Source of the DNA: Haemophilus influenzae
GTDB lineage: Bacteria > Pseudomonadota > Gammaproteobacteria > Enterobacterales > Pasteurellaceae
Direction: 5' to 3'
Length of the DNA stretch: 64,000 nt
Assembly (NCBI RefSeq): GCF_001457655.1
Contig: NZ_LN831035.1
Location: 1,178,001-1,242,000 of the forward strand
Below, piece after piece: positions 25,764 through 31,045 of the stretch. The position numbers and the translations under genes were made by a program. Position 1 is the first letter of the stretch. Every line of letters starts with the position of its first letter. Below the pieces are notes generated by a model. That model saw only the letters and a program-made list of their open reading frames with translations. It made no database searches and was not told where the DNA came from.

Positions 25764-26387
25764 TTATTTCACTTGTGTTGAAAGCTGTTGTAACAAGGCT
25801 TGATTATTTAGCATGATTAATGCTGAGCGTTTAGTTTGATTAACCACTGCGCGAGGTGTAATGGTTGCACCAGAAAATTGATCAAATTTTCCGCCATCTT
25901 TTTTTACCGACCATTCGCTTAAATTATGTTCATTAATTGATTGATTTGTGAAACCTAAAATCCAGTTAGAAATTCGGCGTTCAATTTTATCGCCTAAGCC
26001 TGGTGTTTCGTGATGTTCGATTACTCGTACGCCTAACACTTCGCCTTTCGGATCTAATCCCACAAGCAAGCGAATATCACCAGAGTAACCATCTGGTGCG
26101 GTGGTTTCATAGGCATAGGCAGAAATATTTCCATCTTTTTTCGCAAAATAAATTTTTTGGATACCCACAAAATTTTTATCTTGAGGAATAACCGCACTTT
26201 CTAGCAAATTATTGTTGAAATAATCTTGTGGGATAACTTGTAGAAGTAATTCTCGCTGTTGTGCTGCGATTACCGCATCAATTTTATCTTTGGTTAGGAA
26301 ATAAATTCCTGCAGAAATTATTGTGCAAAGTAGGGCAATAAAGCCTAACAATATGCCATAACGCGATGTGATTTTTACTGTACCCAT
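25764..26387 (-). CDS. rnfG: Rnf electron transport complex subunit G
   Basis: The product is a 207-residue flavoprotein subunit with one N-terminal membrane helix (about residues 11-32) and a periplasmic FMN-binding domain. FMN is covalently attached to threonine in the [10 protein letters not shown] motif near residue 176. I set the start at ATG 26387 ([11 protein letters not shown]); the open frame extends upstream but only by reading inside rnfD. Its ATG shares one base with the rnfD stop (TAATG). It transfers electrons within the complex between RnfC/RnfB and the membrane centres. Confidence 0.93.
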
Positions 26388-27463
26388 TATTTTCTTCCTT
26401 TTGTTGGATAACCAGATACGCGCGGACGTGTGTAATGATCGATAAGTGGGACGCAAATATTACTTAATAAAATGGCGAATGCCACGCCGTCTGGATAATT
26501 TCCGTGATAACGAATGAGATAAACAAATAACCCCACTAATGCGCCAAAAATAATTTTTCCGCGTGGTGTAATGGAGGCTGTGACAGGATCTGTTGCAATA
26601 AAAAATGCACCAAACATCATTGCGCCACTAACGAGTTGGCTAATCGCACTTAAATGCGTGAAACCAGTAAAAGCGGTCGCAGTGGCTAAACAGAAAAAGG
26701 TGACAAGCATCGCCACTGGAATTTGCCAGTGAATAATGCGTTTTAAAATAAGGAAAATTCCGCCCGCTAAGAAAGCCACGTTGATTTGCCACCAGCCTTG
26801 AGCAAAATCGGTTCCATTACCCATAAAAATCGGCAGTTTAATTAATTCATAAAAATCACTTAATTGATTGTGACTTTTATAGAAAATTTTTGCGCTATCC
26901 AAAGGCGTTGCTTGGGTGATTCCATCAATGTTATGTGTAAGTTGTGAAAGGGTAAATCCATCCGTGGTTAAGCCTGAAAATATTAATGAAAATGCATCTG
27001 AAAAAGTCGGTGGTTCCTGTAATAAATTAATTGGTGGCATCCAAGTTGTCATTTGTAACGGAAATGAAATTAGAAGAATTACATAGCCAATCATCGCGGG
27101 ATTGAATGGGTTTTGCCCTAAACCCCCATAAACCTGTTTACCTAATAAAACTGCACAGAGTGTTCCAATGATGATGACCCAATAAGGTGCATAAGGTGGA
27201 ATAGCCATTGCCAAAATTAACGCAGTCAGGGCTACGCTGAAATCTGAAAGATAATTGAGCGGTTTTTTACCTCGTAATTTTATTGCAATAAATTCCGCAA
27301 TGATTGCCGTACCAATGGCTAATGCGGATTGAAGCAGCACGCCAAATCCAAAATAATAAATTTGCGTGAAAAAAGCGGGCATCATTGCCAAAATGACCCA
27401 AAGCATAATACGCGCAGTGAGTTTTCCTGAATGAGTATGTGGGGAGCTAACCATTTTAAACAT
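26387..27463 (-). CDS. rnfD: Rnf electron transport complex subunit D
   Basis: The product is a 358-residue inner-membrane subunit with about nine to ten helices, homologous to NqrB. The FMN-attachment motif is [21 protein letters not shown], the threonine in DPVTAS being the expected covalent site. The conserved [23 protein letters not shown] is present. ATG 27463 gives [14 protein letters not shown]; a second ATG three codons in is an alternative. If the rnfC frameshift is corrected, the rnfC stop falls only 4 bp before this start. Confidence 0.93.
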
Positions 27464-27467
27464 TATT

Positions 27468-28055
27468 TTATTCCTGATTATTTTCTAATGTTGTTTGTGT
27501 TTTTGCCAGTTTCTTCGCTTTTGCCCGAGCAATGGCGGCGGCTACGGCTGCTTTTTTAGGGTCAAGTGCGGTTGAATTTTCTTGTGTTTTTTCTACCGCA
27601 CTTTTTGTTTTTTCTACTTCATTTTCTGCGGTTTGAGAGTTTGAAATAGCTTCGCTGGTGCTATTTGCTTGTGCAAGTTTTTTGCTTTTGCACGGGCAAT
27701 CGCTGCGGCTACGGCTGCTTTTTTAGGGTCAAGTGCGGTTGAATTTTCTTGTGTTTTTTCTACCGCACTTTTTGTTTTTTCTACTTCATTTTCTGCGGTT
27801 TGAGAGTTTGAAATAGCTTCGCTGGTGCTATTTGCTTGCGCAAGTTTTTTTGCTTTTGCACGGGCAATCGCTGCAGCTACGGCTGCTTTTTTAGGGTCAA
27901 GTGCGGTTGAATTTTCTTGTGTTTTTTCTACCGCACTTTTTGTTTTTTCTACTTCATTTTCTGCGGTTTGAGAGTTTGAAATAGCTTCGCTGGTGCTATT
28001 TGCTTGTGCAAGTTTTTTTGCTTTTGCACGAGCAATCGCTGCAGCAACAACCGCT
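27468..28055 (-). repeat. 168-bp tandem repeat encoding the RnfC C-terminus
   Basis: A 168-bp unit (56 codons) recurs about three and a quarter times at the 3' end of rnfC. The uptake-signal core CTACCGCA appears at 27593, 27760 and 27928, so spacings are 167 and 168. Each unit encodes an alanine/lysine-rich stretch ([16 protein letters not shown]) and an acidic/polar stretch ([17 protein letters not shown]). Each also carries one AAGTGCGGT and one ACCGCACTT in inverted orientation. The 167-bp spacing is due to a T6 instead of T7 tract near 27678. Confidence 0.9.
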
Positions 28056-29758
28056 TTTTTCGCATCGGTTGGTTGAGTTTGTTGTTCTTGGTTTTCGACT
28101 TGAGATGCTGCTTGTTGACGAGCTAAACGGCGTGCCTTACGTTGTGCCATTAAATCTGTGTTATCAGGTAAAACTTCTCCTTTTTCTGAGGTTAGTGTTT
28201 TAATCTGCGTTGATTCTGTTTCATTGGCTTTTTTCGCTTTCAAGCGTTCGAGTGCCGCCTTGACTGGATCTTCCCCTTTAGTTTGTGCTAATTCTTCACG
28301 GCGAGCCTGTGCTGCACGTTGTGAACGTGCTTTACGCTCTTGTTCTTCACGTTCCATCCGTGCTTGTTTTGCTTCAAAGCGAATTTTGGCTTCATCTGAT
28401 TTTTTCTGTTTTTCTTTTATTTGCCAGATTTTAGCTTTTTCTTGGCGGAAATATTGAATTAGAGGAATATGGCTTGGGCATACGTAGGCGCAAATTCCAC
28501 ATTCAATACAATCTTTGAGAGCGTATTCTTCCGATTTTTTGTGATCTTCACTGCGCGCAAACCAATAAAGTTGTTGTGGCATTAAATTTACTGGGCAGGC
28601 ATCAGAACAGCTAGAACAACGAATACAAGCCTGTTCTGCTTCAGGTTCGGCATATTCAAGATAATCTGGCGCAAGTAAACAATTGACAAGTTTTGTCACA
28701 GGCGCATTTAGGTTTGGAAGCTCTAGCCCCATCATTGGCCCACCTGCAAATATAGGAAAATGCTTGTCAAATTGATAGCCCGCATCGCTCAATATTTGGG
28801 AAATGGGTGTGCCAAGACGCACCCAATAATTGCCTTTTTCAGCGATTTTATTTCCAGTAAGGGTGACAACACGCTCAATTAAAGGCTCGTCATTTATAAC
28901 TGCTCTTTTTATTGCGAACATTGTTCCCACATTTTGCATTAATACGCCAATGCTGGATGAACGCTCACCGCTTGGCACTTCTATCCCTGTGAGCAAATAA
29001 ATCAGTTGTTTGGTAGCACCTGAAGGATATTTTGTTGGAATAACCCGAACGCTAATATCATTTGCTCCCTGTAGTGCATTGCGGATTGCCGATATGGCTT
29101 CTGGTTTGTTATCTTCAATGGCAATGACAACTTTTTCAGGGTGCAATATATAACGTAAAATACGAATGCCTTTTATGATTTCATCAGCGCGTTCACGCAT
29201 AAGACGATCATCACAAGTGATATAAGGCTCACATTCTGCACCATTGATAATTAAGAGTTTGACTTTTTGCTCTGCTGACTGAATTTTGGCAGCAGTTGGG
29301 AATACTGCACCGCCTAAACCTGCTATACCTGCTTGATAGATTTTGTGAATAAGTTGTTCTGACGATAGCGTTGAAAAATCATCAATAGGATTACGTTCGA
29401 TCCATTGATCTAAACCATCCGCCTGTAAATGAATTGTGGGTTCATCAAGACCTGAAGGATGCGTGGCAACATAAGGTTTAATCGATTTAATTGTGCCAGA
29501 AGTGGGCGCGTGAACTGGCAACATACGCAAGCCATCGCCTTTTGTTAAGGCTTGTCCTTTTAAGACGTAATCGCCCTCTTTTATTAAAAGATTGCCTGTT
29601 GTTCCTAGGTGCTGTTTGAGTGGAATGTAAAAATCCGTGCCGAGAGGCAGATAGCGTAATGGCTGTGAATTAGATTGAGATTTCATTTCTGGTGGATGAA
29701 TGCCACCTTTGAAATCCCATAATTTACCGGAATTGAAACGAGATAATACGTCCGCCAT
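27614..29758 (-). CDS. rnfC: Rnf electron transport complex subunit C, frameshifted near its end
   Basis: This is the peripheral NADH/ferredoxin-facing subunit of Rnf, readable for 714 residues. The N-terminus has the RnfC barrel (GGIHPPEMK). The FMN/NADH fold has [12 protein letters not shown], and [17 protein letters not shown] follows. Two [4Fe-4S] motifs, [12 protein letters not shown] and [12 protein letters not shown], lie near residues 375-425. A long lysine/alanine coiled-coil tail ends the protein. In the last 168-bp repeat, one base is missing from a homopolymer (A6 instead of A7 on the coding strand, near 27678). The frame therefore changes to [12 protein letters not shown]... and stops at 27614. 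Restoring the base continues the repeat to a stop at 27468, 4 bp from rnfD. All redox domains precede the lesion, so function is probably kept. Confidence 0.9.
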
Positions 29759-30340
29759 TTATTCCCCCACAACCAATTTTTTTTCAGAGCCATCGACATT
29801 CATTACTGGAATAACGAGTTTTGCATCAAATTTCCAATCCCAATTATCAATATTTTTTTTCACGGGAATCATTAAAATACAATCTGTCGGGCAGGGCGCA
29901 ACACAAAGCTCGCAACCTGTACAAAGATCGGGAATGATCGTGTGCATTGCTTTATTTGTACCAATAATGGCATCAACGGGACAGGCTTGGATACATTTTG
30001 TGCAGCCAATACACATATTTTCATCAATAAAAGCAACTTTCTCGATAGGTTCTTCTATACCCTCCATTGTTGGTACATCAACCCCTAAAATTTCGGCAAT
30101 TTTTACGATAGTTGTTTGACCACCTGGAATACATTTTGTGATTTCATCGCCATTGCAAATGGCTTCAGCATAAGGCTTACAACCAGGATAACCACATTGC
30201 CCACATTGGCTTTGCGGTAAAATAGCATCAATTTTCTCTACGACAGGATCAGCTTCCACTTTGAGCTTGATTGATGCAAAGCCCAAAATCGCACCGAAAA
30301 TTAAAGCGAGTAGCGTAATTACGATGAATAAAAAGGTCAT
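29759..30340 (-). CDS. rnfB: Rnf electron transport complex subunit B
   Basis: The product is a 193-residue iron-sulfur subunit. An N-terminal helix (about residues 3-25) anchors it. A [4Fe-4S] motif [16 protein letters not shown] lies near 49-64, followed by two bacterial ferredoxin motifs, [16 protein letters not shown] and [16 protein letters not shown], near 113-162. It relays electrons between RnfC and the membrane subunits. The ATG shares its A with the stop of a 27-codon open frame (TAATG). It ends directly before rnfC. Confidence 0.95.
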
Positions 30341-30423
30341 TATTTCTTTCTTTTTCCTGAAAAATACTGAGAGAACCCAATAAATAAAATTAACAGAGTT
30401 ATTATCATTAAAAGGTAAATCAT
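30340..30423 (-). CDS. Predicted 27-residue membrane microprotein within the rnf operon
   Basis: The frame from ATG 30421-30423 to TAA 30340-30342 fills the rnfA-rnfB gap exactly. It starts 4 bp after the rnfA stop, and its own stop overlaps the rnfB ATG as TAATG, the same junction used between rnfD and rnfG. The peptide begins [17 protein letters not shown], a single membrane helix, and ends SGKRKK, a basic tail that would face the cytoplasm (N-out, C-in). There is no strong ribosome site of its own (AGGA is about 17 bases away, inside rnfA), so translation by re-initiation is inferred. I recognise no family. It could be chance, but the phasing and membrane-peptide composition argue otherwise. 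Confidence 0.5.
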
Positions 30424-30427
30424 TTTA

Positions 30428-31045
<618 letters not shown>

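What the first reader, a model, noticed from the sequence alone, without database searches (positions are those of the whole stretch)
30340..30423. Unannotated 27-residue membrane peptide phased between rnfA and rnfB
The 87-bp gap between rnfA and rnfB on the minus strand is filled almost exactly by one reading frame. It starts 4 bp after the rnfA stop, and its own stop overlaps the rnfB ATG as TAATG. The same TAATG junction joins rnfD to rnfG in this operon. The peptide is one hydrophobic helix ([17 protein letters not shown]) and a basic tail (GKRKK), the classic make-up of regulatory or assembly microproteins of membrane complexes. In E. coli, rsxA and rsxB are adjacent without such a frame, as far as I recall. 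A small Rnf accessory subunit would be new.
Basis: partly seen in the sequence, partly recalled or inferred. Interest (0 to 1): 0.75.

Follow-up and report, generated by a model that had tools for sequence, protein, structure and literature searches.

The report
Tiny membrane gene inside rnf operon
A 27-residue membrane peptide that looks like a real, unlabelled gene sits between two genes of an electron-transport pump in Haemophilus-like bacteria, is kept by natural selection in one branch of the family, and is probably a small helper part of that pump.

Summary
The frame is where stated: 27 codons on the minus strand, 4 nt after the rnfA stop, its TAA overlapping the rnfB ATG. It behaves as a gene. 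All 37 genomes examined in four genus codes (g1, g38, g21, g39) hold a homologous frame of 20-30 codons in the rnfA-rnfB gap. In-frame dN/dS is 0.27 (25 genomes, p 4e-8; 0 of 100 neutral simulations reach it) and 0.18 (36 genomes, p 3e-14); the other two frames give values above 1. It is absent from 74 of 74 genomes examined in the other 39 genera, from 80 of 80 other, mostly gammaproteobacterial, rnf loci, and from E. coli K-12, where rsxA and rsxB overlap. An RnfA+RnfB tree of 67 rows fits one gain, with modest support.

The helix resembles the RnfB membrane anchor without gaps: better than controls in g1/g38, not in g21. In the same clade RnfB lacks the N-terminal Tyr of most other genera and is about five residues shorter there. 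The peptide may be a partial copy of that anchor. Translation, place in the complex and function are untested.

The parts
30340..30423 (-). 27-codon frame, [27 protein letters not shown] + TAA; hydrophobic stretch then basic tail
   Evidence: homologues in 37 of 37 clade genomes; omega 0.27 / 0.18 in frame; mean hydropathy 2.85 for residues 1-17, -2.02 for 18-27
30338..30342 (-). TAATG junction: peptide stop overlaps rnfB start by one base
   Evidence: stop and start overlap in 33 of 37 clade genomes, 2-22 nt apart in G073, G128, G129, G131
30424..30430 (-). rnfA stop (30430-30428) and 4-nt spacer before the peptide ATG; weak Shine-Dalgarno match upstream
30428..31006 (-). rnfA/rsxA (192 aa)
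   Evidence: NCBIfam NF003481 RsxA, E 3.7e-103
29759..30340 (-). rnfB/rsxB (193 aa), N-terminus [16 protein letters not shown], shorter than in genera without the peptide
   Evidence: NCBIfam NF003475 RsxB, E 4.7e-92
27614..29758 (-). rnfC-like ORF (714 aa), next in the operon
   Evidence: ORF; name from its place in the operon, not searched
26387..27463 (-). rnfD
   Evidence: Pfam PF03116, E 9.7e-105

Best explanation
A genuine small gene that encodes a single-pass inner-membrane microprotein, made by translational coupling from rnfA and passing ribosomes on to rnfB, and acting on the Rnf complex as a KdpF/CydX-like accessory helix for stability, assembly or tuning. Shown: the conserved, selected frame, its phasing and its restriction to one clade. 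Inferred: translation; N-out/C-in topology (positive-inside rule: in this peptide the charges are all in the C-terminal tail, as they follow the RnfB anchor); and docking near the RnfA/E/B/G helix bundle described for another Rnf complex.
For: Homologous frame in 37 of 37 genomes of g1, g38, g21, g39. dN/dS 0.268 (25 genomes, 25 codons, 2dlnL 30.05, p 4.2e-8) and 0.179 (36 genomes, 17 codons, 2dlnL 57.6, p 3.3e-14); frames +1 and +2 give 1.35-2.74. In 100 neutral simulations for the first set the highest 2dlnL was 7.87 and the lowest omega 0.54. Y3, L5, T9 and G16 are the same in the 14 aligned of 19 distinct variants. Always between rnfA and rnfB; the 37 rows fall on one side of one branch of a 67-row RnfA+RnfB tree, 89/72. 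Peptide start overlaps the rnfA stop in 14 of 37, peptide stop overlaps the rnfB ATG in 33 of 37. RnfB of the same clade has a Tyr before ALIFG in 1 of 37 against 63 of 73 others, and is about 5 residues shorter there, which links the peptide to RnfB. No RNA-structure alternative.
Against: No expression, proteomic or interaction evidence. The Shine-Dalgarno match before the peptide is weak (mean -0.9 kcal/mol over 37, random positions -1.0, 84 other ORF starts -3.8), so translation rests on coupling. Constraint is milder than on rnfB codons 2-26 (omega 0.09) and rnfA codons 161-188 (0.04). G131 (g39) has only 20 codons and no basic tail; G120 has W in place of the otherwise aligned G16. Other Rnf complexes work without it. 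In g1+g38 the synonymous rate scale is lower than in the neighbouring segments (0.95 against 1.83 and 3.49), so some constraint may be on the DNA or RNA itself. The 37 genomes are close kin and hold 19 distinct peptides.
Confidence: 0.62

Rival explanations
1. Cis-acting coupling device: translating the short frame matters only to deliver ribosomes to rnfB; the peptide itself has no role.
For: Stop-start overlap with rnfB in 33 of 37 genomes; weak Shine-Dalgarno at the peptide start; lower synonymous rate than neighbours in g1+g38.
Against: In 53 of 74 genomes without the peptide rnfB's ATG already overlaps the rnfA stop, as in E. coli K-12, so no spacer was needed; selection acts on the amino acids, in frame only.
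Confidence: 0.17
2. Membrane microprotein that happens to ride in the rnf operon but acts on another target, for example a different membrane protein or membrane stress.
For: No direct tie to Rnf was tested; small membrane proteins of varied targets are known (recalled).
Against: All 37 homologues lie at this locus and no strong copy was found elsewhere; RnfB changed in the same clade.
Confidence: 0.13
3. Remnant of a duplicated rnfB 5' end, or a chance frame, without function.
For: Resemblance to the RnfB anchor in g1/g38; shortened in G131.
Against: omega well below 1 in frame only; 0 of 100 neutral simulations reach it; frame kept in 37 of 37.
Confidence: 0.04
4. Leader-peptide attenuator or structured RNA element.
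For: Short frame upstream of a gene.
Against: Fold of 141 nt no better than shuffles (z +1.23), no Rfam match at E up to 1; codons are selected as amino acids.
Confidence: 0.04

Closest known systems
KdpF, CydX, CcoQ/CcoS, AcrZ: small one-helix accessory subunits of membrane complexes (KdpF, CydX, CcoQ, CcoS in passages of PMC10903887; AcrZ in a search listing)
   Same: Very short, one hydrophobic helix; KdpF and CydX are encoded with their complex (recalled); works like them by anatomy
   Different: No match to a Pfam or NCBIfam family at E up to 1; the neighbouring complex is Rnf; association not tested
RnfB N-terminal membrane anchor
   Same: Ungapped register with Y and G aligned (35 of 37 peptides; scored in 10 representatives), same expected orientation with basic residues after the helix
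   Different: No ferredoxin domain, no cysteine in 37 of 37; similarity not significant for the g21 forms
RnfH of Azotobacter vinelandii Rnf1 (passages of review PMC12174285)
   Same: A lineage-specific extra Rnf subunit without cofactor
   Different: RnfH is a cytoplasmic protein; this is a short membrane peptide encoded between rnfA and rnfB

Membership tests
Small one-helix accessory subunits of membrane complexes (functional class of KdpF/CydX) | Under 50 residues with one hydrophobic helix | tested here: met
   27 aa; mean Kyte-Doolittle hydropathy 2.85 for residues 1-17 and -2.02 for 18-27; no TM predictor was run
Small one-helix accessory subunits of membrane complexes (functional class of KdpF/CydX) | Conserved protein-coding frame beside the genes of the complex | tested here: met
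   37 of 37 clade genomes, omega 0.18-0.27
Small one-helix accessory subunits of membrane complexes (functional class of KdpF/CydX) | Physically part of the complex and affects its stability or activity | not testable with these tools
   needs biochemistry
KdpF or CydX sequence families | Match to a curated family profile | tested here: not met
   0 Pfam and 0 NCBIfam families at E up to 1; a weak test, since a passage of PMC4325964 says the H. influenzae CydX itself gives no Pfam hit
Paralogue of the RnfB anchor helix | More similar to RnfB N-termini than other membrane helices are | tested here: inconclusive
   Profile test, 10 representatives: six g1/g38 forms beaten by 0 of 71 N-terminal controls and 2-6 of 501 helices; G131 by 1 of 71 and 9 of 501; G121 by 5 of 71 and 23 of 501; two g21 forms by 14 of 71 and 82-84 of 501. 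BLOSUM62 test, 8 representatives: g1/g38 0-3 of 71 and 5-13 of 501; G131 1 and 11; g21 19-21 and 110-139
Full RnfB | Iron-sulphur cysteine motifs | tested here: not met
   no cysteine in 37 of 37 peptides
Leader peptide / structured RNA | Stable or known RNA structure | tested here: not met
   z +1.23; no Rfam match at E up to 1

The most novel reading that the evidence does not exclude
In the ancestor of this clade the 5' end of rnfB was duplicated in tandem; the first copy kept the start site at the rnfA stop and became a free-standing copy of the RnfB membrane anchor, while the second copy, the present RnfB, shed the tyrosine-bearing end of its own helix. The Rnf complex thus gained a 20-30 residue extra subunit that shares or replaces part of the RnfB docking site in the RnfA/E/G helix bundle: a subunit born by splitting an anchor helix off an existing subunit.
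Probability: 0.35. Interest if true: 0.72.

Novelty: new member of a known kind. Interest (0 to 1): 0.58.

Why it matters
The Rnf structure papers and review of which I saw passages describe six subunits, or one more, the cytoplasmic RnfH. A selected membrane microprotein in the operon of Haemophilus-like bacteria would be an uncatalogued component of a bioenergetic complex in a group of human commensals and pathogens, and its clade-limited origin beside its possible parent helix would make the birth of a subunit directly testable.

Tried and rejected
Chance frame: rejected by selection and conservation. RNA element: no Rfam match, fold no better than shuffles. Known small-protein family: none in Pfam or NCBIfam; no solved chain matches the profile at E up to 10. 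Wider distribution: none in 80 of 80 loci: 79 have a projected gap under 60 nt, too short for 20 codons, and the one of 82 nt (L218), read by eye, holds no such frame. In 295 genomes of the order the only strong matches (E 5e-18 to 4.6e-12) are in 6 clade genomes, the next best being E 0.0022. One search matched 52 of 140 family genomes at E up to 10: 35 are clade genomes at this locus (G079 and G131 were missed by that search and found by reading the gap); the other 17 (E 0.05-1.02) are weak and none lies at its genome's rnfA as placed. Duplication from RnfB: a BLOSUM62 test and a profile test agree for g1/g38 and fail for g21; kept as a possibility. The first codon-model run had its rate scale stuck at the starting value; superseded. 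The quick tree of 111 rows needed two changes because long-branched G131 stood apart; the careful tree of 67 of the 111 rows (18 genus codes, without G024) gave one. Two wrongly picked start codons (G116, G125) were corrected. Literature: no listed title or abstract start, and no passage read, reports such a peptide; three of these searches had more papers than I had listed, and most subscription journals are not held. Structure prediction was not run: a lone 27-residue helix would say nothing about docking.

Full report
OBSERVATION. The minus strand of the window carries rnfA (30428-31006), the frame in question (30340-30423) and rnfB (29759-30340). The peptide ATG is 4 nt after the rnfA stop, its TAA shares a base with the rnfB ATG, and rnfB has no in-frame start further upstream.

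ORGANISM. No tool named it. The genome is one contig of 1.89 Mb; 800 kb of it hold 643 copies of the 9-mer AAGTGCGGT and 26 of ACAAGCGGT, G+C 38.4%. From recall, that is the uptake-signal type and density of Haemophilus influenzae; genus names for the codes g1, g38 and g21 (perhaps Haemophilus, a parainfluenzae-like genus and Aggregatibacter) are inference. The loci, which name organisms, include Actinobacillus, Ursidibacter, Nicoletella and [Haemophilus] ducreyi; their gaps are too short for the frame.

DISTRIBUTION. rnfA was found in 140 of 140 family genomes. I read the rnfA-rnfB gap in 111 of them, covering all 43 genus codes; the 29 not read are all in genera represented by others, and none is in the four bearer codes. 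In g1 (10 of 10), g38 (15 of 15), g21 (11 of 11) and g39 (1 of 1) the gap projected from RnfB is 64-104 nt and holds a homologous frame: 26-30 codons in g1/g38, 23-24 in g21, 20 in g39; 19 distinct peptides in all. In the other 74 genomes the projected gap is 2-26 nt, and rnfB's ATG overlaps rnfA's stop in 53 of 74; the exception is G032 (about 350 nt), which has no match to the peptide. None of 80 other loci, mostly gammaproteobacterial, has it, nor E. coli K-12. A search of 295 genomes of the order finds strong matches only in six clade genomes. On a careful RnfA+RnfB tree of 67 of the 111 rows the 37 bearers are one side of a branch (support 89/72, not starred; 93% of 200 bootstrap trees), next to g5, whose RnfB is of the ordinary type. 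The quick tree of all 111 rows needed two changes because long-branched G131 stood apart. One gain without observed loss is the simplest reading, not proven.

IT IS CODING. On a tree of rnfA+rnfB nucleotides, a codon model gives omega 0.268 for 25 codons in 25 genomes (g1+g38; 2dlnL 30.05, p 4.2e-8) and 0.179 for 17 codons in 36 genomes (g39 left out; 2dlnL 57.6, p 3.3e-14). The same nucleotides read in frames +1 and +2 give 1.46 and 1.71 in the first set and 1.35 and 2.74 in the second; only the last differs from 1 at p 0.0004, upward. One hundred neutral simulations of the first set reach at most 2dlnL 7.87 and omega no lower than 0.54. Variable columns by codon position are 12, 6, 16 of 25 each, and 14, 4, 16 of 17 each. 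Y3, L5, T9 and G16 are the same in 14 aligned variants; one variant not aligned there (G120) has W in place of G16. Against: constraint is weaker than in rnfB codons 2-26 (0.088) and rnfA codons 161-188 (0.039), and in g1+g38 the synonymous rate scale is lower than theirs (0.95 against 1.83 and 3.49), so a nucleotide-level constraint may add to it.

HOW IT IS PROBABLY MADE. The Shine-Dalgarno match before the peptide averages -0.9 kcal/mol in 37 genomes, like random positions (-1.0), while 84 other ORF starts average -3.8; before rnfB it is -2.7 in the clade against -3.9 in 73 others. The peptide start overlaps the rnfA stop (14 of 37) or follows it by 4-15 nt, and its stop overlaps rnfB's start in 33 of 37. 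Coupled re-initiation is the natural reading, inferred. The ancestral adjoining rnfA/rnfB already allowed coupling, so coupling alone does not explain the insertion.

RELATION TO RNFB. Peptide residues 2-16 align without gaps to the 15 residues of RnfB that end in the conserved G of ALIFG, with Y on Y and G on G; 35 of 37 peptides have this Y-to-G spacing, the exceptions being G121 (insertion) and G120 (W for G). Against a profile of 39 genera without the peptide I scored 10 representatives. Six g1/g38 forms beat all 71 other N-terminal helices and all but 2-6 of 501 helices from 864 kb of this genome; G131 is beaten by 1 of 71 and 9 of 501; G121 by 5 of 71 and 23 of 501; the two g21 forms by 14 of 71 and 82-84 of 501, so they are not significant. 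Shuffling the core gives p 0.0056, 0.0044, 0.14 and 0.026 for G000, G118, G080, G131. A BLOSUM62 test gave the same picture. Meanwhile the clade's RnfB has a tyrosine before ALIFG in 1 of 37 genomes against 63 of 73 others, and that part averages 10.8 against 15.8 residues. This is consistent with a tandem partial duplication followed by division of the ancestral helix features, but convergence of hydrophobic helices is not excluded.

MECHANISM. In passages of PMC9588780 (C. tetanomorphum), the single helices of RnfB and RnfG form a four-helix bundle with one helix each of RnfA and RnfE; in passages of PMC11889175 (A. woodii) TM1 of RnfB contacts TM1 of RnfG. A peptide with an RnfB-like helix and basic C-terminal tail would, by the positive-inside rule, sit in the same orientation and could pack at this bundle, bracing the RnfB anchor or replacing contacts lost by its shortened helix. 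This step is inference. Passages of the review PMC12174285 describe one extra Rnf subunit, the cytoplasmic RnfH. In passages of PMC12591398 an rsxA guide is among fourteen depleted guides tested singly in H. influenzae, twelve of which gave growth defects; the passage does not say whether rsxA is one of the twelve. A passage of PMC3928620 says that H. influenzae type f strain KR494 carries two contiguous rnf operons, one partial; whether the peptide is in both was not seen.

VERDICT. That it is an Rnf accessory subunit is the best reading, not shown. It works like KdpF or CydX by anatomy; no test here places it in those sequence families.

Noticed in passing
window 27504-28060: Tandem array, period 168 bp, 3.3 copies, in the 3' end of the rnfC-like ORF; by the translation the last copy is read in another frame, so the C-terminus departs from the repeat; 150 nt without a listed rnf gene then separate it from rnfD.
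   Followed up: partly
L101 (G032), rnfA-rnfB gap: The only examined family genome outside the clade with a long gap (about 350 nt); it holds no match to the peptide.
   Followed up: partly
L077 (G131, g39), rnfA-rnfB gap: The peptide frame ends after 20 codons without the basic tail and 22 nt before rnfB; this genome is also long-branched in RnfA+RnfB.
   Followed up: partly
L044 (G121, g38): Peptide variant with a two-codon insertion in the helix and a different stop that overlaps the rnfB ATG by four bases.
   Followed up: no
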